Shown in pieces: positions 556 through 9,159 of a DNA stretch of 19,508 nt. Made by a program: the position numbers and the translations under genes. This DNA comes from Chloroflexota bacterium (GTDB lineage: Bacteria; Chloroflexota; Ktedonobacteria; Ktedonobacterales; Ktedonobacteraceae): NCBI GenBank assembly GCA_005881995.1, contig VBHV01000134.1, positions 1 through 19,508 of the forward strand, in the 5' to 3' direction. The stretch's first letter is position 1. Every line of letters begins with the position of its first letter. The notes beneath the pieces are model-generated. The model saw nothing but the letters and a program-made list of their open reading frames with translations. It was not told the origin of the DNA and did not search any database.

Positions 556-1677
556 TTACCCGCGTTCTTCAATGGGTGTATAGGCGACATTTTTCGGGCC
601 GACGTATTCGGCGCGCGGGCGGATCAAGCGGTTATTGGCGAACTGTTCCAGGACGTGGGCGGTCCAGCCGGAGATGCGACTGCATGCAAACATGGGCGTA
701 TCCAGGTCTATCGGGATGCCCATCATGTAGTAGACGGAGGCCGAGTAGAAGTCAACGTTGGCGTACAGTCCCTTATGCTCCTTGATATAGTCCTCGATGA
801 TACGTGACATCTCATACCAGCGTGACTCGCCGGTACGCTTGCCCAGTTCTTCCGACATGCTGCGCAGGTGGGTGGCGCGCGGATCCTCTGTGCGGTACAC
901 GCGATGCCCGAAGCCCATGATGCGGTCTTTGCGCTCGAGCGCGGCTTGAATGTATGCAGGAGCTTGATCAACCTCACCAATCTTCAAAAGCATGCGCATG
1001 ACCTGCTCGTTGGCGCCGCCGTGCAGGGGACCAGAGAGCGCGCCAATCGCGGAGGTAATGGCAGCATACATGCTCGCCAGGGTGGCAGCCGTGACGCGCG
1101 CCGCAAAGGTCGAGGCGTTGAGTTCGTGGTCGGCGTGCAAGATCAGGACGACATCCAGCATATGCGCTTTGTACTCATCCGGCATTTCGCCGGTCAGCAT
1201 ATATAAAAGGTTGGTGGCGTGGTTGGAATCGGTGAGCGGGGCAAGTGGTTCTTTGCCGTTGCGCAGGCGGTCCCAGCTTGCGACAATGGTTGGCATGACG
1301 GCAGTAAGGCGCATGGAGCGGCGGCGGTTGGCTTCAGTAGAGTTGTCGCCAGTATCGGGATCGAAGGAAGAGAGAGAGGAAACAGTGGTACGTAGCACAT
1401 CCATAGGGGTAGATGTCCTGGGCAGCAATCGCATCATCTCATTGACAGCATCTGGAAGTGTGCGATTGGCCCGGAGTTGCGCATTCACCTCTTCAAGCTG
1501 CGCTTTAGTGGGTAAAACGCCATGCCAGAGTAGATAAGCCGTCTCCTCGAAGGTGGAGTAATGCGCTAAGTCGTGAATATCAACGCCATAATACAACAGT
1601 TTGCCTTGTTTGCCATCCAGGTCGCAGATGTAGGAATGCGCTGCTACGATATCTTCAAGTCCATCGGTGGTAGCCAT
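556..1677 (-). CDS. gltA: Citrate synthase (citrate/2-methylcitrate synthase family)
   Basis: This 373-residue protein has the length of the short bacterial type II-like citrate synthases (CitZ/PrpC size). It condenses oxaloacetate with acetyl-CoA at entry to the TCA cycle, in the cytosol. The catalytic triad is visible: His219 in GPLHGGAN, His258 in GFGHRVY and Asp309 in NVDFYSA. The HADHELN stretch (181-187), conserved in the family, is present. The start at 1677 is preceded on the minus strand by GGAGGAG (plus-strand 1685-1691) at a good distance, and a near-perfect promoter lies further upstream. From sequence alone, 2-methylcitrate synthase (PrpC) cannot be excluded. No prpB/prpD neighbours are present, which favours the TCA role. 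It is apparently transcribed alone. Confidence 0.95.
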   Translation of the reverse strand: MATTDGLEDIVAAHSYICDLDGKQGKLLYYGVDIHDLAHYSTFEETAYLLWHGVLPTKAQLEEVNAQLRANRTLPDAVNEMMRLLPRTSTPMDVLRTTVSSLSSFDPDTGDNSTEANRRRSMRLTAVMPTIVASWDRLRNGKEPLAPLTDSNHATNLLYMLTGEMPDEYKAHMLDVVLILHADHELNASTFAARVTAATLASMYAAITSAIGALSGPLHGGANEQVMRMLLKIGEVDQAPAYIQAALERKDRIMGFGHRVYRTEDPRATHLRSMSEELGKRTGESRWYEMSRIIEDYIKEHKGLYANVDFYSASVYYMMGIPIDLDTPMFACSRISGWTAHVLEQFANNRLIRPRAEYVGPKNVAYTPIEERG

Positions 1678-1797
1678 AGAAGGTCTCCTCCAGGGATACT
1701 CTCTTCACTGTGGCAGGCGCGGCGGGTGTCACGAAACTGATTCCACAGCGAATCAGACAACTTTCACCACAACAAATGATATGCGGTTCTGTAAAGT

Positions 1798-1827
1798 ATT
1801 ATAGTCATCCAACCCGAGCCATGTCAA
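1798..1827 (-). promoter_or_regulatory. Near-consensus sigma-A promoter of citrate synthase
   Basis: On the minus strand TTGACA (1827-1822) and TATAAT (1803-1798) both match the consensus perfectly, with an 18-bp spacer. A T-rich tract directly upstream (plus-strand 1828-1840, seven As) resembles an UP element. The start of transcription would fall near 1791, giving a leader of about 110 nt before the citrate synthase ATG. This is the strongest promoter in the window. Confidence 0.8.
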
Positions 1828-1881
1828 AGGAAAAAAAGTTGGCATTTATCACAATCTCATCTTATTTTACCTGGACGCTGC

Positions 1882-3318
1882 CTATTTCGTTACAGCCTCC
1901 CGCGGCACAGCATTTGCTTCCCCAATCGCCATTGGTGGTGAAATCACCTCACGCGCTTTGAGTTCTGCGCGATGTTTCTTCTCAATATCGCGCCGCCAGC
2001 GATCACCCAGTTTCATCCATGGTTTCTCCACCACAATGAAGGAGATGAAGGCGAAAGGAAAGACGACGACGAATGCCCACAGCCATAACAGACCATACAC
2101 GACAAATTTGTTCGTGAGGTGAAGCCATGGCGCCACCTGCGCCGTAAAAATGACGAGCAATGGCAGGTGCCACATGTAAAGACTATACGAAATCAAACCG
2201 ATCCAGCGCAATGGCGCCCACTCAAATACGCGCTTGAACGCGGGCGTGCCATAGAGGATGGCGGCAATACACGCGCCGAAGCCAAACGAGAGTAACATCT
2301 CGCTCAGCCAATTGTAGGCTGGCAGCAGCCCATTTAAGAATGGCCAGCCACGCGATGCATCGTTAAAATGCCACATAGCGCCGAACGTCAGCACGACGAT
2401 ACCGCCACCCCACAGCCAGGGGCTGAGACGCGCCCATGTCTCGCCAAATTTACGCCTGGTCGAGGGGTTTTGCGCGTACATGTAGCAGAGACTGATGAAC
2501 ATGCCGACGGCGAAATCTTCTGTATATTTGCCTGTGATGCCAAAGGAGAAGAAGAGCAGAATATTGAGCACCGGACGCGGTACCAGTACCGTCTTCTCAG
2601 GGTGATTGAGATAGTACAATCCGAAGTAGCGCACAAACAATCCCCAGGCGATCACTACCAGAATACAGAATGTCACCGCCTTGAAACGATTGTGCAGCGG
2701 AATCTGTCGCACAAACAGCGCAAACCCCAGACAAATGAGTGGCAGGAGCATGTAGAATTGCCACTCGGTCGCCAGTGTCCAGAACGGCCCGTTCAGTTGC
2801 CGGAAGGTGGATTGCGAGGAGTCCATAAAGAAGGTTAAGAAGAGCAAGAGGTCTTTTAAGTGGTCGCGTTGCAGGTATTCGGGATGCATAAATAGGATGA
2901 GCAGGAAGAGCGAAACATAATAGCCAGGCATGATACGCAGCACACGGCGCAAATAGAAGACGCGCGCAAGCGGCCAGGGGGTATCAAATAAGAGCGCCTT
3001 GGCAAAGGGCATGAAGAGAAGAAAACCAGAAAGCACGAAGAAGAGCGTAACTCCCGTTCCGCCCGCGGTAGCTACCGATGAAGCCAGGGGATTAGCGACC
3101 TGGTTCCAGAGACTATCGCCGGTTATACGATTGATATGGAAGACAATGACCATCAGAATAGCAATTGCGCGCACGCCGTCAAGCACGGCAATGGAGTTTC
3201 TTTTACCTTCCTTCTGGTTGGTGTCTTCCAGCTTATATGCGATCCATCGACCAAAGCGTTGCAATAATTGTCGTATCCACAGAAACGGAAAGGGTATAGA
3301 GTGTCCCAGGTTCTTCAT
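1882..3318 (-). CDS. Acyltransferase 3 family membrane protein (OafA/YrhL type)
   Basis: This 478-residue integral membrane protein has about ten predicted hydrophobic helices. After a cytoplasmic N-terminus comes the family hallmark VLDGVRAIAILMVIVFHINR (about 45-64) with the conserved helix-1 histidine (His61). Later features also fit: YLRRVLRIMPGYYVSL, the FWTLATEWQFYMLLPL segment and the late SYSLYMWHLPLLV motif. Acyltransferase-3 proteins move acetyl or other acyl groups across the membrane onto sugars, peptidoglycan, lipids or antibiotics; the acceptor cannot be read from sequence. There is no C-terminal SGNH domain, so it is the minimal type. The start at 3318 has a weak upstream GAGG. 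The gene is divergent from an ECF sigma gene, so an envelope-related role is plausible but inferred. Confidence 0.92.
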   Translation of the reverse strand: MKNLGHSIPFPFLWIRQLLQRFGRWIAYKLEDTNQKEGKRNSIAVLDGVRAIAILMVIVFHINRITGDSLWNQVANPLASSVATAGGTGVTLFFVLSGFLLFMPFAKALLFDTPWPLARVFYLRRVLRIMPGYYVSLFLLILFMHPEYLQRDHLKDLLLFLTFFMDSSQSTFRQLNGPFWTLATEWQFYMLLPLICLGFALFVRQIPLHNRFKAVTFCILVVIAWGLFVRYFGLYYLNHPEKTVLVPRPVLNILLFFSFGITGKYTEDFAVGMFISLCYMYAQNPSTRRKFGETWARLSPWLWGGGIVVLTFGAMWHFNDASRGWPFLNGLLPAYNWLSEMLLSFGFGACIAAILYGTPAFKRVFEWAPLRWIGLISYSLYMWHLPLLVIFTAQVAPWLHLTNKFVVYGLLWLWAFVVVFPFAFISFIVVEKPWMKLGDRWRRDIEKKHRAELKAREVISPPMAIGEANAVPREAVTK

Positions 3319-3334
3319 CTTGCCTCACTGCTCA

Positions 3335-3346
3335 ATTAACGTTAAT
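3335..3346. promoter_or_regulatory. 12-bp perfect palindrome, possible operator
   Basis: ATTAACGTTAAT is a perfect palindrome, centred about 20 bp upstream of the acyltransferase start in the divergent region shared with the sigma gene. On the minus strand it overlaps a possible -10 (TATTAA). Size and position suit a dimeric repressor site, but the repressor is unknown. Confidence 0.35.
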
Positions 3347-3490
3347 ACTCTTTTCTACTAACGAATGAAGTCGCCGGAAAAACTCATTTTTGTACTTTTG
3401 GGAGGATTTTGCTGTCTACGTCCTCCAGGGTGGAGCAGAAAGAAAATAGTGATCACCAGCGTAGTAACTATAGCAAGTGACGCCGGTTTA

Positions 3491-3524
3491 TGCTACACTA
3501 GCGTCCAAAAGCACGGAAATGAGG
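3491..3524 (+). promoter_or_regulatory. Extended -10 promoter and RBS of the ECF sigma gene
   Basis: TGCTACACT (3491-3499) is an extended -10 element, but no good -35 lies at the right distance. GAGG at 3521-3524 is seven bases before the ATG and fixes the start at 3532. The leader is short, about 25 nt. Confidence 0.45.
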
Positions 3525-3531
3525 CGTCGTT

Positions 3532-4170
3532 ATGACGGAGTCAGCGCGAGAGGATGAGCCACTGCTCATTGCTCGCAGCCAGGGTGGAGATGTCAACGCA
3601 TTTAATTCACTGGTGCTGCGCTACCAGCAAACAGTGTATAACGTCAATCTGCGTATACTCGGCGATCGCGATACGGCTGCCGATATCACGCAGGAGACGT
3701 TTATTGCTTCCTTCCGCGCGATCCAATCCTTCCGGGGCGGCTCCTCATTCCGCGCCTGGCTGCTGCGCATTGCCTCCAACCTGTCATGCGACTACTGGCG
3801 GCGTGTGAATCGTCACCCCGTCGAATCTTTGGAAGATCTGACCGATGAGGAGCAGCCCTATGCGGCCAGTGTGATAAGTTCCCTGGTCGCGACCGAGCGA
3901 GAGGTCAATCCCGAAGAGGCGCTGCTGAACCAGGAATTACAAGAAGTCATCCAGCGCGGCCTAGAAGAATTGCCGCTTGATCAACGTGTGGCGGTCATTC
4001 TATGCGATGTGCAGGGCCTCTCGTACGAAGAAATAGCCACCACGACGCAGACAACGCTCGGAACCGTGCGCTCACGCATTGCGCGCGGACGCTCGCGGCT
4101 GCGTAACTATTTACAGAAACATAGGGAACTTTTGCCAGGAAATTATCGTCTACTCTCTGATAGAGATTAG
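3532..4170 (+). CDS. ECF-type RNA polymerase sigma factor
   Basis: The 212-residue protein has the two-domain ECF layout. Sigma region 2 (about 22-90) includes LRILGDRDTAADITQETFIA and FRAWLLRIASNLSCDYWRR. Region 4 (about 135-195) includes the helix-turn-helix LSYEEIATTTQTTLGTVRSR followed by ARGRSRLR. A longer acidic linker (about 98-130) separates them. Such factors direct RNA polymerase to a small regulon, often for envelope stress. The next gene on the same strand encodes a zinc-finger anti-sigma factor, so the pair should form a signal-responsive module and probably one transcript. The divergent acyltransferase is a candidate target, by position only. Confidence 0.95.
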   Translation: MTESAREDEPLLIARSQGGDVNAFNSLVLRYQQTVYNVNLRILGDRDTAADITQETFIASFRAIQSFRGGSSFRAWLLRIASNLSCDYWRRVNRHPVESLEDLTDEEQPYAASVISSLVATEREVNPEEALLNQELQEVIQRGLEELPLDQRVAVILCDVQGLSYEEIATTTQTTLGTVRSRIARGRSRLRNYLQKHRELLPGNYRLLSDRD

Positions 4171-4222
4171 TTGGGTATGTGCCTAGTTGGCCCTGGCAGT
4201 CGCCATGGAACGGAGCTTTGGA

Positions 4223-4951
4223 GTGACACAACACGAGCATCATAGACATCTAACAACCGGGCAGCTATCAGCCTATCTCGATAAACAGCTTACTCCCCAA
4301 GAGCAGGCTGCTTTTGATGCTCATATCTCGACCTGCCCGCCATGTCAACAGGCTCTGGCGGAACTGCGCAGCACGGTTGCCTTACTGCGTGCCATGCCCA
4401 GCGTCGATGTGCCACGTTCTTTCACCCTGCCCGCTTCTATACGGCCTGTACCAGTACAAGCAGCGCGCGTGAACACCGAACCGCCGAGGCGACAACCAGT
4501 ACCCCACTACAGGCTACGACGCACCGTGCGAGCTGTGAGTACGCTCGCCGCTGTCCTTGGATTCCTCTTCATCCTGTCGGGTTTTCTTACCTATGTCCAT
4601 TTTGCCAGTGGAGGAACAGCAACCAGCAGCGGGTCTCCGGCTTTCTCTTCGCAAAATACTCAAACCACAAAACCCACCTCGGGCGCCGCAGAGCAGACCG
4701 GGCGTGGCACGCCTAACGTAGGTAAAGTGAATGGCTCAGCAACGAAAACGCCTGTACCCGCACAGTCCACTCCTATCGCCACGCCAGCAGCCAATACGGG
4801 TTCTCCACATACGGCAGACCAGGCACCAACAATTCCCCCTGTACTTGATCTGAGCAGATCAGAAGGTCGCCTCAGCCTCGGCTTGCTTCTGCTGCTGTTC
4901 GGTATCATCGGCTTACTTACCACCAGGGGCAGGCGCCGCATCGTTTATTAA
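4223..4951 (+). CDS. Membrane anti-sigma factor with N-terminal zinc finger
   Basis: The N-terminus carries the ZAS-type zinc-binding motif H-x3-C-x2-C in AHISTCPPC (His34, Cys38, Cys41 from this start), after the helix LTTGQLSAYLDKQLTPQEQ typical of anti-sigma factors. A transmembrane helix follows (about 102-126), then roughly 85 residues rich in Ser, Thr, Pro, Gly and Ala, then a second helix (about 217-234) and a basic end (RGRRRIVY). I chose GTG at 4223 because GGAG at 4212-4215 lies seven bases before it and the protein then begins as the family does. The in-frame ATG at 4205 and TTG at 4187 lack a good ribosome site. The likely role is to hold the upstream ECF sigma factor at the membrane until a signal releases it. 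The gene is convergent with acetate kinase. Confidence 0.88.
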   Translation: MTQHEHHRHLTTGQLSAYLDKQLTPQEQAAFDAHISTCPPCQQALAELRSTVALLRAMPSVDVPRSFTLPASIRPVPVQAARVNTEPPRRQPVPHYRLRRTVRAVSTLAAVLGFLFILSGFLTYVHFASGGTATSSGSPAFSSQNTQTTKPTSGAAEQTGRGTPNVGKVNGSATKTPVPAQSTPIATPAANTGSPHTADQAPTIPPVLDLSRSEGRLSLGLLLLLFGIIGLLTTRGRRRIVY

Positions 4952-4964
4952 ACCAACTCCCAGA

Positions 4965-5028
4965 GCAAGCCTCGCCCCTACCATACGCCAGCGAAGCGGC
5001 CAACCGTATAGGGAGGGGCGAGGCTTGC
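4965..5028. repeat. Nested palindrome (REP/MITE-like) at the anti-sigma/ackA junction
   Basis: Outer arms of 15 bp (4965-4979 and 5014-5028, GCAAGCCTCGCCCCT) are perfectly complementary. Inside lie a second 5-bp pair (4983-4987 with 5005-5009) and a small GC-rich inner hairpin, so the whole could extrude as a cruciform or act as a two-way terminator between convergent genes. No T-run follows on either strand. The regular nested structure looks like a dispersed palindromic repeat rather than ordinary intergenic DNA. The acetate kinase stop codon lies inside it. Confidence 0.7.
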
Positions 5029-6234
5029 CCTCGCCCTGCAAAGGGGATCCTGAGCAATAGCCCAGTCTTCTTGCGTATGGACAATCACCACCCGCACAGC
5101 TGAATCTGGGGCAGCAATATCCTCATCAGCCGGAGATTGGGCATTTTTCTGCTCGTCTAGCTCGATACCGAGAAAGCCAAAGGATTCACACGCTGCGGTG
5201 CGTACCGCGGCGGCATTTTCCCCCACACCTCCGGCAAAGACCAGCGCGTCCAGTCCCCCCAGCGATGCGAGCATGGCGCCGATGTAGAAACGCAGGCGAT
5301 GCGCATATACCTCGAAGGCGAGTTTAGCCCGCATATCGCCCTCGTGCATATCGCTCAACACCTGCCGCATATCACCTGAACCGGCGACGCCTTTTAACCC
5401 GGAAGCCTTGTTCAGGGTGGTATTCAACTGCTCGACGCTGTACTTTTTTTCTCGCAGCAGGTAAAGCAGGATGCCGGGGTCAATGGAACCGGAACGGCTG
5501 CCCATCATAACGCCTTCCATGGGAGTAAAGCCCATGGTGGTGTCGATGCTGCGCCCCTGGCGTATCGCGGCCAACGATGCCCCATTGCCTAAGTGACAGG
5601 TGATGAGTCGCAGCGTTGACAGGTCTCTGCCCAGTACCTGGGCAGCACGATGCGCGCAATAGTCATGGCTGATACCATGAAATCCAAAGCGGCGAATGCC
5701 CTCTTGCTCGTACCATGCGTACGGGACGGGATAGACGACGGCAGATAAGGGCATAGCGCGATGAAAGGCTGTATCGAACACCGCGACCTGCGGGACCGAG
5801 GGCAGGACGCGCTCAATCGCTTCGATGCCCTCTAGATTCGCCGGATTATGTTCGGGGGCCAGCACGGCCAGGCGTGCGATGGCCTCTTTCACCTCCGGCG
5901 TCACAAAGACACTTTCCTCGAACTCCTCTCCGCCATGTACCACACGGTGCCCCACGATATCAATGGCCGACAACTGCTCGATCACTCGTGTTTTTCCACT
6001 ACGCAGGCTTTCGAGCATGTGCGTAATCACCTCTGGCCGCGCATCCGTTTGCAGGTTCTCTTCAAGCACTGTATCGCCGGTTGTAATTTTGAGTGACGTT
6101 GTGCCCGGATGATGCGCCCAATCCGCGTCGGCCTGCCAGAGCGGAGTAGGCGCGAGATCAGGTAATGTATCGCCTACTTCGTACAGGCGGCTCTTCTGAC
6201 TGCTTGAACCCGCGTTGAAAACGAGTATTTTCAC
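4978..6234 (-). CDS. ackA: Acetate kinase
   Basis: It interconverts acetyl phosphate + ADP and acetate + ATP in the cytosol. Family signatures are present throughout: the N-terminal MKILVFNAGSSSQKS with Asn7, GHRVVHGGEEF with the substrate-binding Arg, VFDTAFHRAMP with the catalytic Asp, RFGFHGISHDY, TCHLGNGASLAAI, GFTPMEGVMMGSRSG and ALVFAGGVGENA. I place the start at GTG 6234: GGAG on the minus strand (plus 6241-6244) is six bases before it, and the protein then begins exactly like other AckA proteins. An upstream GTG at 6246 is also in frame. The last ~19 residues (after QDPLCRA) are encoded by the palindromic repeat and look foreign to the family. No pta gene is nearby; instead a phosphoketolase remnant sits two bases upstream of the start. 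Confidence 0.97.
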   Translation of the reverse strand: MKILVFNAGSSSQKSRLYEVGDTLPDLAPTPLWQADADWAHHPGTTSLKITTGDTVLEENLQTDARPEVITHMLESLRSGKTRVIEQLSAIDIVGHRVVHGGEEFEESVFVTPEVKEAIARLAVLAPEHNPANLEGIEAIERVLPSVPQVAVFDTAFHRAMPLSAVVYPVPYAWYEQEGIRRFGFHGISHDYCAHRAAQVLGRDLSTLRLITCHLGNGASLAAIRQGRSIDTTMGFTPMEGVMMGSRSGSIDPGILLYLLREKKYSVEQLNTTLNKASGLKGVAGSGDMRQVLSDMHEGDMRAKLAFEVYAHRLRFYIGAMLASLGGLDALVFAGGVGENAAAVRTAACESFGFLGIELDEQKNAQSPADEDIAAPDSAVRVVIVHTQEDWAIAQDPLCRARASLAPPYTVGRFAGVW

Positions 6235-6236
6235 GA

Positions 6237-6332
6237 TCAACTCCACTGCCAGTTGGCAATCTCCTCCGGGTCTACTCCATGTTCCTGGATGTAGCGCCGG
6301 AAATCAACAAGCACAAGTTCAATCTTCTTCCA
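6237..6332 (-). pseudogene. 3' remnant of a phosphoketolase gene (xfp)
   Basis: On the minus strand a 31-codon open stretch ends at TGA 6239-6237, two bases before the acetate kinase GTG, and is preceded by an in-frame TAG at 6335-6333. Its end, YIQEHGVDPEEIANWQWS, strongly resembles the C-terminus of xylulose-5-phosphate/fructose-6-phosphate phosphoketolases (typically YI.EHGEDMPEI..W.W). Phosphoketolase makes acetyl phosphate, the substrate of acetate kinase, and xfp-ackA pairs are a known arrangement, so the position fits. Only the last ~30 of about 790 codons remain; the rest has been lost and the TlpA gene now lies beyond. The family call rests on my memory of the C-terminal motif. Confidence 0.6.
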
Positions 6333-6372
6333 CTACCTACATTACCATTACGTTGCCACGAGTTTCCAAGAT

Positions 6373-7041
6373 TTACGAGAAGGAGACACCAACCGAGGCC
6401 AGCCCCTGTTTCATCGTCTCTGGCGTCAATGGCTGCACGAAGACGGAGCGAACGAAGCCATTTCTATCGATAAAGTAAGTAGTGGGGATGGCGGTCACGT
6501 TATACTGTTGGTCGACCGCGTTGCCCGCGTCGAAGAGCAGCGGGTAGGTGACATGATAGTTTGTGCCAAAGGTGCGGATATCATCCTTTGGATCGGCCTG
6601 GTTGACGCCTACCAGGACAAACTTTCCCTGCGCGGCATCGCGCGCATACACTCGCTGCAGGTAAGGAACCTCCGCCAGGCAGGGCAGGCAGGATTCAGAC
6701 CAGAAGTTGAGTATGACCGGATGCCCTCGCAAAGTATGCAAGTCGATGGAGGAGCCGATGCCACTGCCGCCGTAGACAGGCAAGTGAAATTGGGGCGCAG
6801 CGGTACCGACGGGAATACCACCCAGGGGCTGTGATGTGGGCGCAGGCCAGAGAACCAGCACACTGAATACTAACGCCAGTATCCCAATCACTCCAAGTAC
6901 CAGGAAGGTTGTACGTCTGCGCCGGTAGGTGACATTGCGGGGCCGTTGTGCGTACTGCTCCGCCAGTTCATGCTTGAGCTCCTGCCGCTGGGTGCGCACC
7001 AGGGTTTGTTCTTGTTGGGTTTTGCTCAATTTCTGGGCCAT
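6373..7041 (-). CDS. Membrane-anchored TlpA/ResA-like thioredoxin-fold protein
   Basis: The 222-residue protein has a charged, Gln-rich cytoplasmic N-terminus (1-43), one transmembrane helix (about 44-66), and then an extracytoplasmic AhpC/TSA-TlpA domain. This starts with GTAAPQFHLP and contains VILNFWSESCLPCLAEVPYL with the active-site pair Cys118-x-x-Cys121, and the cis-Pro loop AIPTTYF (Pro186). The usual WC of WCxxC is replaced by SC, which may alter redox potential. Such proteins reduce disulfides outside the membrane, for example in cytochrome c maturation. No ccm/res genes are adjacent, so the partner is unknown. The start at 7041 is supported by GGAG (plus 7051-7054) nine bases upstream. 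The gene is divergent from a multi-helix membrane protein. Confidence 0.92.
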   Translation of the reverse strand: MAQKLSKTQQEQTLVRTQRQELKHELAEQYAQRPRNVTYRRRRTTFLVLGVIGILALVFSVLVLWPAPTSQPLGGIPVGTAAPQFHLPVYGGSGIGSSIDLHTLRGHPVILNFWSESCLPCLAEVPYLQRVYARDAAQGKFVLVGVNQADPKDDIRTFGTNYHVTYPLLFDAGNAVDQQYNVTAIPTTYFIDRNGFVRSVFVQPLTPETMKQGLASVGVSFS

Positions 7042-7069
7042 GCGATGCTTCTCCTATTCCTTGTACCAT

Positions 7070-7098
7070 AGTATAAGCGCATGTTCTGGGGCATGCAA
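7070..7098 (-). promoter_or_regulatory. Candidate promoter of the TlpA-like gene
   Basis: On the minus strand TTGCAT (7098-7093), a 17-bp spacer and TATACT (7075-7070). The -10 is good and the -35 poor. It would give a leader of about 20-25 nt that just contains the ribosome site. Confidence 0.4.
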
Positions 7099-7126
7099 GG
7101 GTTTTTCTTTATTGAGTTTTTCGGGG

Positions 7127-7156
7127 TTGACGAGATATATTTTAGAGGAGTATGCT
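7127..7156 (+). promoter_or_regulatory. Promoter of the seven-helix membrane protein gene
   Basis: TTGACG (7127-7132), an 18-bp spacer and TATGCT (7151-7156). Transcription would start near 7164, about 40 nt before the ATG at 7205. The ribosome site AGGTGGGA (7190-7197) lies in this leader. Confidence 0.55.
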
Positions 7157-7204
7157 CTCTATCAGTAGTGTACTTTCACATATGAAGGCAGGTGGGATTA
7201 AATC

Positions 7205-7981
7205 ATGTCAAGCATTCTCATTTTGCTGATCTTTGCTCTTGTGAATGTGGTAGTAACCGGCCTCTTCGCGGGGGTGGTGTTACGGCAGTTTGCGCGTCGG
7301 CGGCGCGTCTATCAATTGTACTGGATGATTGCTTTGCTGATGGCATTTTTTGCCACGCTGAGCTATGTGTGTATGGTGGTGGTTGGGCCAACAAGCGGCG
7401 CGGGGATCGTCTTCTTCCGGCTTTATTACGTACTGGGTGCCGCGCTTGCGCCCTCCTGGCTGGGATTGGGAAGTATCGCGTTGGTGACGAGCGCGCGTGT
7501 CACACGTATCAGCCTGGTCATACTTTCTCTACTCAGCGTTCTCGTAGCTGTGTTGATCACGACTACCCCTGTGAATATGCACAATCTCAGTCAGATTGCG
7601 GGTACGCCCGGTACGGGTATTTTGCAGTTCGGCGCGTGGTTGGTACTTACCATTACTCTGAACTCGCTGGGGGTGCTGGCTGTGGTCGGAGTAGCCGTTT
7701 ACTCTGGATGGAAGCTGTGGCGCCGTTCATCTAACGTGGCTGGTTTCAACCCTGGCAATCTGCTATGGGCCAATGTGTTGATTCTCATTGGAGACGCGCT
7801 CAATGCTGCTGCTGGAACACTTGCACGCTTCTTTGGATTAGCAAGTAGCTTCTGGCTAATCATGGCGTTCGGCTGGATCGCGTTCTTTACCGGTGTTCTT
7901 CTGACCGGTCGTCGCGCTGCAGTCAGCAGGCCGGTGAATGAAATTCGCGATAAGAGCGAAATGAAAGGTTCGACTGCATAG
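7205..7981 (+). CDS. Seven-helix membrane protein of unknown function
   Basis: I do not recognise a family. The 258 residues form about seven hydrophobic helices: an N-terminal helix, a basic loop RQFARRRRVYQ, then helices around 40-60, 70-95, 100-120, 140-165, 185-210 and 215-235, and a charged cytoplasmic tail (RDKSEMKG). The layout resembles the 7TM sensor halves seen in front of some histidine kinases and diguanylate cyclases, but no output domain follows. The ATG at 7205 is chosen because AGGTGGGA lies just upstream and a good promoter precedes it. It is followed on the same strand, 92 bp later, by the TPR gene, which has its own promoter-like sequence. No substrate motif is visible. Confidence 0.85.
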   Translation: MSSILILLIFALVNVVVTGLFAGVVLRQFARRRRVYQLYWMIALLMAFFATLSYVCMVVVGPTSGAGIVFFRLYYVLGAALAPSWLGLGSIALVTSARVTRISLVILSLLSVLVAVLITTTPVNMHNLSQIAGTPGTGILQFGAWLVLTITLNSLGVLAVVGVAVYSGWKLWRRSSNVAGFNPGNLLWANVLILIGDALNAAAGTLARFFGLASSFWLIMAFGWIAFFTGVLLTGRRAAVSRPVNEIRDKSEMKGSTA

Positions 7982-8012
7982 GGGTGATCTCCGCGAATGG
8001 TTTTTGTTCCTA

Positions 8013-8041
8013 TTGCCTCCATGGCATAATTCTGCGATAAT
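8013..8041 (+). promoter_or_regulatory. Candidate promoter of the TPR gene
   Basis: TTGCCT (8013-8018), a 17-bp spacer and GATAAT (8036-8041). The transcript would start near 8048, just before AGGAGG (8058-8063). This supports translation from the TTG at 8074. Confidence 0.5.
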
Positions 8042-8073
8042 AGCGCTGACAATGAGCAGGAGGTTCGAGTGCT

Positions 8074-9159
8074 TTGGATGAACAAGTTGAGTTAGCAGGC
8101 GCTTCGCACAAGGGTAAGAAGCAAGGAATCACCATGGTGGATGGCAGCATATCATCGAACAAAACAGACACGGCGGAACAACTTCGACAATCTGCGCGCG
8201 AGTATGTGCAGGCTAAACGCTGGGCTGAAGCACGATCAGCATATGCTGCTCTGCTTTCAAACGATAAAGAAGATGAAGATGCGCTGACAGGTCTGGCGGG
8301 AGCTTTGGAGAAGCTTGCCGATTATGAGGCGATGTACGAAGCCGCCCAGGATGCCGTTCAGGCCAATCCAGGTTCAGCCAGGGCGCTGGCGTATAAAGCG
8401 CGCGCTCTGCAAAAACTGGAACGGCTCTCGGAAGCTACGATTGCCAACGACCAGGCTTTACTGCTGGACACCAATCTGGCGCTGGCATGGTTCAATCGCA
8501 GTGGGCAGCAACTCCTGCAGGAGCATTTCCCAGAAGCCCTGCGCTACGCGGAACGCTCCATTGAACTCGACCCCGATGATGCACGCGCCTGGACCAACAA
8601 GGGACTGGCTTTGCTGCAACTCCATCGTCTACATGAGGCATTAGAGGCAGTGAATGAAAGTCTGGCGCGTGACCCCGACTATCTGGTTCCACTTACGCTC
8701 AAGGGCGAGATACTACGCAGGTATGGCCGCTTGCAAGAAGTCGTAGAGACCATGCGCCACGCTCTGGAGATCGCCCCCGATGATATCTCTTCGCTCAATG
8801 TGATGGCGCAGACGCTGCGAACATTGAGTTCCTACGAGGAGTTATCGAAGATTAGTGCGCGTCTGGTGGAGCTAACGCCCGAAAGCCTGTTTGCCTGGGA
8901 TAGTTACGCCTGCGCGCTGCGCGGCCTGGGCCGTTTCGACGAAGCTACCATCGCCATCGAGCATGTGCTGGAACTCGACCCCACCAATGTACGCTACATG
9001 ATGATCAAAGCCGATAACCTCTATCGTCTGGGACGTTACCGCGAGGCGGTCAGTGCCTCTGAATCGGCACTGCGCCTCGATGAAGAGTATCCACCCGCCC
9101 GCAGGATTCACGAGAAGGCCATGCGGGCCATGTACCAGCAAAAGCGGAAAAAGAAGTGA
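8074..9159 (+). CDS. Tetratricopeptide-repeat protein
   Basis: The 361-residue protein is almost entirely TPR helices: about nine 34-residue units from residue ~30 to ~345, with typical signatures such as ARAWTNKGLALLQLHRLHEA and ALEIAPDDISSLNVMAQTL. There is no signal peptide or membrane helix, and it ends in a basic run (QQKRKKK). TPR solenoids bind partner proteins; nothing identifies the partner. AGGAGG at 8058-8063 is ten bases before TTG 8074, the start used here. ATG 8134, with AAGGA six to seven bases upstream, is a reasonable alternative that removes a 20-residue polar tail. Its 3' end is overlapped for 288 bp by the open frame of the convergent sigma gene. Confidence 0.9.
   Translation: MDEQVELAGASHKGKKQGITMVDGSISSNKTDTAEQLRQSAREYVQAKRWAEARSAYAALLSNDKEDEDALTGLAGALEKLADYEAMYEAAQDAVQANPGSARALAYKARALQKLERLSEATIANDQALLLDTNLALAWFNRSGQQLLQEHFPEALRYAERSIELDPDDARAWTNKGLALLQLHRLHEALEAVNESLARDPDYLVPLTLKGEILRRYGRLQEVVETMRHALEIAPDDISSLNVMAQTLRTLSSYEELSKISARLVELTPESLFAWDSYACALRGLGRFDEATIAIEHVLELDPTNVRYMMIKADNLYRLGRYREAVSASESALRLDEEYPPARRIHEKAMRAMYQQKRKKK

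What the first reader, a model, noticed from the sequence alone, without database searches (positions are those of the whole stretch)
6237..6332. Phosphoketolase remnant fused to the front of ackA
A 31-codon minus-strand stretch with a phosphoketolase-like C-terminus ends two bases before the acetate kinase start, and the rest of the gene is missing. This looks like a dismantled xfp-ackA module: the enzyme that supplied acetyl phosphate is gone while acetate kinase keeps its ribosome site inside the dead gene's tail. It implies a change in acetate metabolism in this lineage, or relocation of xfp.
Basis: partly seen in the sequence, partly recalled or inferred. Interest (0 to 1): 0.7.

Follow-up and report, generated by a model that had tools for sequence, protein, structure and literature searches.

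The report
Deleted phosphoketolase's tail before acetate kinase
A bacterium has lost the gene for a sugar-splitting enzyme that in a close relative sits just in front of its acetate kinase gene, and only the last 25 codons of the lost gene remain, probably holding the start signal of the surviving one; it is a clear but ordinary trace of gene loss, and a few related genomes show similar losses.

Summary
The stretch before ackA is a phosphoketolase C-terminus: Pfam XFP_C 176-202 of 202, E 0.0028; own profile E 1.9e-16, none in 1614 downstream control pieces. Only 25 of the 31 codons plus the stop (6237-6314) are homologous. G024 has six window genes in the same order with an intact 815-aa xfp between TlpA and ackA: xfp was deleted in place. 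The scar equals the end of intact Xfp P0065 over 25 of 25 residues, so the loss is recent or the tail constrained. A GGAG for ackA lies in the scar's last codons; the gap is 2 nt. Similar losses are seen in G047 (decayed scar), G048 (no scar) and, more weakly, G039. The metabolic reading is not supported: no genome is held for the window, and 27 of 28 ackA-bearing genomes of the family have an xfp, the three other losers included. A deletion scar, ordinary in kind; an assembly error is not excluded.

The parts
6237..6314 (-). 3' scar of a type-A xfp: last 25 codons plus TGA (VLVDFRRYIQEHGVDPEEIANWQWS*)
   Evidence: Pfam XFP_C 176-202/202; profile E 1.9e-16; DNA profile E 3e-16; 25 of 25 residues identical to the end of intact Xfp P0065
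6315..6372 (-).
   Evidence: no match above shuffles to the xfp leaders of G024 and G002; longest exact match elsewhere in the loci held is 13 nt
4978..6234 (-). ackA, acetate kinase, 418 aa, start GTG 6234-6232
   Evidence: Pfam Acetate_kinase E 2.6e-141, profile 1-392 of 392; eight of eight ACK motif patterns (patterns recalled) found
6241..6244 (-). GGAG, likely Shine-Dalgarno of ackA, inside the last two codons of the scar, 6 nt before GTG
   Evidence: sequence; duplex energy -5.9 kcal/mol, equal to the 10% quantile of 300 random positions
6261..6267 (-). GGAGGAG inside the scar, 14 nt before the in-frame alternative start GTG 6246
   Evidence: duplex energy -9.5 kcal/mol, beyond the 5% quantile (-7.0) of random positions; position counted by hand
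6373..7041 (-). TlpA-like thioredoxin-fold protein upstream on the same strand; left neighbour of xfp in G024
   Evidence: Pfam AhpC-TSA E 1.1e-22; 63-66% identical to the G024 gene next to intact xfp
556..4951 (.). citrate synthase (-), acyltransferase-like (-), ECF-type sigma factor (+), anti-sigma-like protein (+): syntenic block downstream of ackA, also in G024; names other than citrate synthase rest on reading the translations
   Evidence: 79, 65, 72 and 46% identity to genes in L078, same order and relative orientation; Pfam Citrate_synt E 7.5e-138

Best explanation
An ancestor carried TlpA - xfp (type A) - ackA on one strand. A deletion of about 2.4-2.6 kb (sizes from G024) removed xfp and its leader but stopped inside the 3' end of xfp, leaving 25 codons plus stop. 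Shown: homology, position, synteny with an intact relative. Inferred: the breakpoint was tolerated because ackA starts 2 nt after the xfp stop and its ribosome site lies in xfp's last codons, so a loss that also cut the tail would silence ackA; ackA is now read from an upstream promoter, probably together with TlpA. The loss is probably recent, since the tail has no broken codon. Phosphoketolase activity itself is probably kept by another xfp elsewhere in the genome.
For: Identity of the tail. Synteny: citrate synthase, acyltransferase, sigma, anti-sigma, ackA and TlpA in the same order in G024, with xfp of 815 aa between TlpA and ackA; TlpA stop to ackA start is 138 nt in the window and 2756 nt in G024. 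Two intact pairs have the same 2-nt gap, read by eye from the letters: G032 (TAG CC ATG) and the Chlamydiia MAG L009 (TGGAGTTGATCATG against TGGAGTTGATCGTG here). Relatives show similar losses: G047 scar DNA E 2.1e-5, G039 scar E 5.9e-5, best downstream control 0.38. In G048 ackA follows a leader that matches G002's xfp leader over about 272 nt, up to ACAACG/ACAGCG. The tree puts G048 with G002 (intact xfp; N half of ackA only) and G047 outside both, so these are two losses unless G002 regained xfp. The last 15 nt of an upstream gene sufficed for termination-reinitiation in E. coli reporter fusions (PMC10666635, section 7 read).
Against: The window's own genome is not held, so a second xfp cannot be shown. 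The 58 nt before the scar match nothing, so the left breakpoint is not located. The scan found no sigma-70-like promoter on the minus strand at 6150-7250. The GGAG at the ackA start is only moderate. In G024 ackA starts 56 nt after xfp, and the other gaps that the script measured run from 3 to 198 nt, so an RBS inside xfp is not general. G048 kept no tail, so a tail is not always needed. In the larger search the G047 and G039 scars have E 3.3e-4 and 9.3e-4, no better than a similar tail in G001 that is not before ackA (6.1e-4); the protein profile gives G039 only E 0.0071, and the whole-genome tail search did not report either of them. The contig length of P0065 (42160) is not among the 120 AckA clusters listed, so nothing shows that P0065 comes from the window's species.
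Confidence: 0.82

Rival explanations
1. Assembly artefact or strain mixture: the source assembly skipped the body of xfp, which is really intact.
For: The tail is undecayed, identical over 25 of 25 residues to intact P0065, as an artefact would predict; no genome or reads are held.
Against: The 58 nt before the scar match neither xfp ends nor the TlpA-xfp spacer of G024, so it is not a simple skip between two known edges; similar losses are seen in other genomes, among them G047 where only the last 47 nt of the tail still match.
Confidence: 0.1
2. The tail is kept because it works: a short leader ORF (GTG 6314 to TGA 6237, 25 codons) whose stop lies 2 nt before ackA, coupling ackA translation to ribosomes that read the scar.
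For: Open frame; differences from G024 fall 5/1/14 on codon positions 1/2/3; 2-nt gap; short 3' fragments suffice for coupling in E. coli.
Against: The same codon pattern follows if the loss is recent. The site before GTG 6314 is weak (-3.3 kcal/mol; random quartile -3.9, median -2.5). In the E. coli fusions ribosomes came in from a reporter gene fused in frame, whereas here stop codons separate the scar from TlpA, so the scar would need its own start. The G047 scar has decayed and G048 has none.
Confidence: 0.15
3. ackA moved here by transposition or transfer and carried a piece of xfp with it.
For: None beyond the remnant itself.
Against: Six genes in the same order as in G024, where xfp is whole at this place.
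Confidence: 0.02
4. Chance resemblance of a short ORF to the phosphoketolase end.
For: PDB sequence search of the 31 residues finds no phosphoketolase.
Against: E 1.9e-16 and 3e-16 with controls; 25 of 25 identity to P0065; position and stop as in G024.
Confidence: 0.005

Closest known systems
Xfp-AckA gene pair (phosphoketolase pathway to acetate and ATP)
   Same: Same gene order and strand as intact pairs; ackA complete; the tail is of the Xfp type found in G024 and in proteins labelled Ktedonobacteraceae.
   Different: The xfp body is missing; 25 codons and the stop remain.
Gene-deletion scars and pseudogene remnants in bacterial operons (recalled as a general kind)
   Same: 3' fragment left between neighbours that are in place; related genome with the intact gene.
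   Different: Nothing in kind; the scar also holds a ribosome site for the next gene, and losses recur at the same place in related genomes.
Termination-reinitiation pairs (PMC10666635, abstract and section 7 read)
   Same: Stop of the upstream frame 2 nt before the next start; the paper finds that coupling needs overlaps or very short distances.
   Different: The commonest pairs overlap by 4 or 1 nt; here the upstream frame is a remnant and its translation is untested.

Membership tests
Phosphoketolase (XFP) 3' remnant | Sequence match to the XFP C-terminus | tested here: met
   XFP_C 176-202/202 E 0.0028, under the curated cut-off; profile E 1.9e-16
Phosphoketolase (XFP) 3' remnant | Ends at the native C-terminus and stop | tested here: met
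   W-x-W-S then TGA as in G024; P0065 ends W-Q-W-S
Phosphoketolase (XFP), functional enzyme | XFP_N and XFP catalytic domains present | tested here: not met
   only 25 codons remain; the TlpA gene ends 58 nt upstream
In-place deletion scar | Relative with the intact gene between the same neighbours | tested here: met
   L078 (G024): TlpA 4961-5689, xfp 5942-8389, ackA from 8446
In-place deletion scar | Breakpoints mapped on both sides | tested here: inconclusive
   right edge 6314-6320; left edge not found
Xfp-AckA module lost from the genome | No xfp elsewhere in the genome | not testable with these tools
   no genome held
Translationally coupled leader ORF | Scar is translated and affects ackA | not testable with these tools
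   only sequence: 2-nt gap, weak site before GTG 6314

The most novel reading that the evidence does not exclude
Excision of xfp from the xfp-ackA operon is a recurrent event in Ktedonobacteraceae. Where ackA's ribosome site lies inside xfp, the 3' tail is kept under selection as a mini-cistron that goes on feeding ribosomes to ackA, so a dead enzyme's last codons become a regulatory leader.
Probability: 0.15. Interest if true: 0.5.

Novelty: new member of a known kind. Interest (0 to 1): 0.3.

Why it matters
It is a clean case of an operon losing one member while the other keeps its start signal inside the lost gene's end, with an intact relative for comparison and other losses at the same site in kin. 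That makes a small natural series for asking which deletion edges an operon tolerates. In this family xfp is common (27 of 29 genomes) and pta rare (3 of 29), so acetate kinase here probably works with phosphoketolase.

Tried and rejected
Chance resemblance and transfer of ackA with a piece of xfp were rejected (profiles with controls; synteny). I tried to extend the remnant upstream into the 58 nt before it: DNA alignments to eight type-A xfp ends start at 6320 or nearer to ackA, and the leaders of G024 and G002 gave nothing above shuffles. I looked for a promoter before ackA: none on the minus strand by the consensus scan. I searched the 47 genomes of the class with a tail profile for further short remnants anywhere: 21 of 47 had matches, all in open frames of 198 aa or more, so it showed no new scar and did not report the weak ones of G047 and G039. 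I looked for the small ORF behind the G001 scar in the other loci held: only in G001.

Literature: phosphoketolase with Ktedonobacter (0 papers); Ktedonobacteria with acetate kinase (4); phosphoketolase with acetate kinase and Chloroflexi (1); gene order or adjacency (15 listed of 203; 8 of 8; 12 of 21). Among the titles and abstract starts listed I saw none on xfp loss before ackA; of these listed papers I saw passages of two only (PMC4390882; PMC11650866). A general search on gene remnants and coupling (10 listed of 49) led to PMC10666635, of which I saw the abstract and section 7.

Limits: the class search covered the 47 genomes held, fewer than the class has. The scar scan used 30 regions (the window and 29 ackA loci). 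It left out G002 (ackA in two contig pieces), G038, the second G037 copy and the distant ackA copies; the upstream region of G025 was only 117 nt because its contig starts there, and some downstream control regions were shorter than 1500 nt. The loci partly overlap each other.

Full report
What is there. On the minus strand, TGA at 6239-6237 ends an open stretch from 6332, and the ackA GTG follows two bases later at 6234. The peptide matches the last residues of Pfam XFP_C (176-202 of 202, E 0.0028, 17.6 bits against a cut-off of 23.4). I collected Xfp C-termini from relatives; they fall into two types, which I call A (12 sequences) and B (30). A profile of the 12 type-A tails finds the window stretch at E 1.9e-16 among 1859 pieces upstream of 30 ackA genes, with no hit in 1614 downstream pieces. 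In the window's own 784 pieces it is the best hit, E 7.8e-17, the next being 2.5. A DNA profile gives E 3e-16. The PDB sequence search found no phosphoketolase, which says little for 31 residues.

Its true length. DNA alignments to eight type-A xfp ends start at 6320 or nearer to ackA. Y-E-Y just before the tail is invariant in 119 of 119 homologues that could be placed, of 120 listed, but the window reads I-E-L. So 25 codons and the stop are phosphoketolase (6237-6314) and the six codons before them are not. The 58 nt between the TlpA stop and the scar match neither the two xfp leaders tested nor anything longer than 13 exact nt elsewhere in the loci held.

The deletion. G024 carries citrate synthase, acyltransferase, sigma, anti-sigma, ackA and TlpA in the window's order (79, 65, 72, 46, 67 and 63% identity), and between TlpA and ackA a whole xfp of 815 aa. 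TlpA stop to ackA start is 2756 nt there and 138 nt in the window. The simplest reading is deletion of xfp in place. An intact Xfp from public assemblies, P0065 (813 aa, cluster of 5 members on 5 contigs, one source name being Ktedonobacteraceae), ends with the same 25 residues. Against G024 the scar differs at 20 of 78 nt, 14 of them at third codon positions, with 7 amino-acid changes, the trace of past coding constraint. The scar has not decayed, so the loss is recent or the tail is still constrained. Against a same-species reading of P0065: its longest contig (42160) is not among the 120 AckA clusters listed.

How ackA starts now. GGAG at 6244-6241, in the last two codons of the scar, is 6 nt before the GTG; its pairing energy is moderate (-5.9, the 10% quantile of 300 random positions). 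A stronger GGAGGAG lies further in, 14 nt before an in-frame alternative GTG at 6246 (-9.5). Two intact pairs show the same 2-nt gap, G032 and a MAG labelled Chlamydiia (L009), the latter with almost the same letters (read by eye). The other intact pairs that the script measured have gaps of 3 to 198 nt; G015 was not measured. It is inferred, not shown, that a deletion that also took the tail would have cost ackA its start site. In E. coli reporter fusions the last 15 nt of an upstream gene sufficed for termination-reinitiation, and distances near 20 nt nearly abolished it (PMC10666635; abstract and section 7). There the ribosomes came from a reporter fused in frame; here stop codons separate the scar from TlpA, so the scar would need its own start, and the site before GTG 6314 is weak (-3.3). 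No minus-strand promoter was found at 6150-7250.

The same in relatives. Of 47 genomes of the class, 39 have ackA, 38 have XFP_C and 3 have pta. In 10 of the 39, xfp lies directly before ackA on the same strand: G002, G008, G015, G023, G024, G026, G031, G032, G037, G038 (positions). G047 has a decayed type-A tail before ackA, of which the last 47 nt match (DNA E 2.1e-5), and G039 a short type-B tail about 130 nt before it (E 5.9e-5); the best downstream control is 0.38. By protein profile G039 is weak (0.0071). G048 has no tail: its ackA follows a leader that matches the xfp leader of G002 over about 272 nt, up to ACAACG/ACAGCG, a short repeat found with one difference on both sides in G002. 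G048 does hold a type-A xfp piece at a contig edge, but that is only 79% identical to the G002 gene, so it is not that gene moved within the last divergence, and it may be foreign to the MAG. In the ackA tree G048 pairs with G002, which keeps xfp, and G047 is outside both (100/93 and 100/99), so these are separate losses unless G002 regained the gene. With the window this makes three losses, and G039 a weaker fourth. The window's own place in the tree is not resolved; G024 is nearest by path.

Background. In the 688,014 bases held, some of them overlapping, the partial matches at E up to 0.05 that do not lie in whole xfp genes were the window scar (4.8e-15), G047 (3.3e-4), G039 (9.3e-4) and one more: a type-B tail in G001 (6.1e-4) that precedes another small ORF, near an intact xfp. 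So scars are not confined to ackA, and the two weak ackA scars rest on their place as much as on their score. A whole-genome search with a tail profile found 21 of 47 genomes with matches, all in frames of 198 aa or more; it reported neither weak scar.

Metabolic meaning. Of the 28 genomes of the family with ackA, 27 have at least one XFP_C match, among them the three other losers: G047 1, G048 2 and G039 3. So loss at this site is usually not loss of the enzyme. In fungi acetate kinase partners with Xfp (PMC4390882, passages). Whether the window's genome has another xfp cannot be tested. Twelve longest-contig lengths occur both in the Xfp list and in the AckA list (120 rows each, compared by eye), which suggests that this Xfp type and this AckA type often share a contig; this is indirect.

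Judgement. The sequence observation is right and the deletion is well supported; the claim of changed acetate metabolism is not. As a kind it is a deletion scar. What lifts it slightly is the recurrence at one site and the start signal inside the scar.

Noticed in passing
L019 1010-1050 (G001:C1, about 1343315-1343355): Another xfp scar, of type B: 12 codons and stop (DIPELRGWVWTD) 26 nt before a 69-aa ORF, on the opposite strand to an intact xfp nearby.
   Followed up: partly
L085 3724-3813 (G002): An inverted repeat, seen by eye, that could be a terminator or attenuator lies between xfp and ackA in G002.
   Followed up: no
G048:C231: A type-B xfp lies next to pta in G048 (PTA match 1747-2715, XFP_C 2789-3394, both minus), one of only 3 pta-bearing genomes of 47.
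   Followed up: no
G028:C2:2142430-2142981: XFP_C match of positions 19-202 in an open frame of only 189 aa: probably a truncated xfp.
   Followed up: no
G038:C1:8913385-8914662: ackA next to xfp is matched in two pieces, possibly an insertion or a frame break.
   Followed up: no
L009: A MAG labelled Chlamydiia carries a type-A xfp-ackA pair with nearly the window's junction; transfer or mislabelling.
   Followed up: no
window 7205-7981: Membrane-protein-like gene divergent from TlpA; its homologue lies next to ackA or xfp in G047, G048 and G002, where no TlpA match was found.
   Followed up: partly
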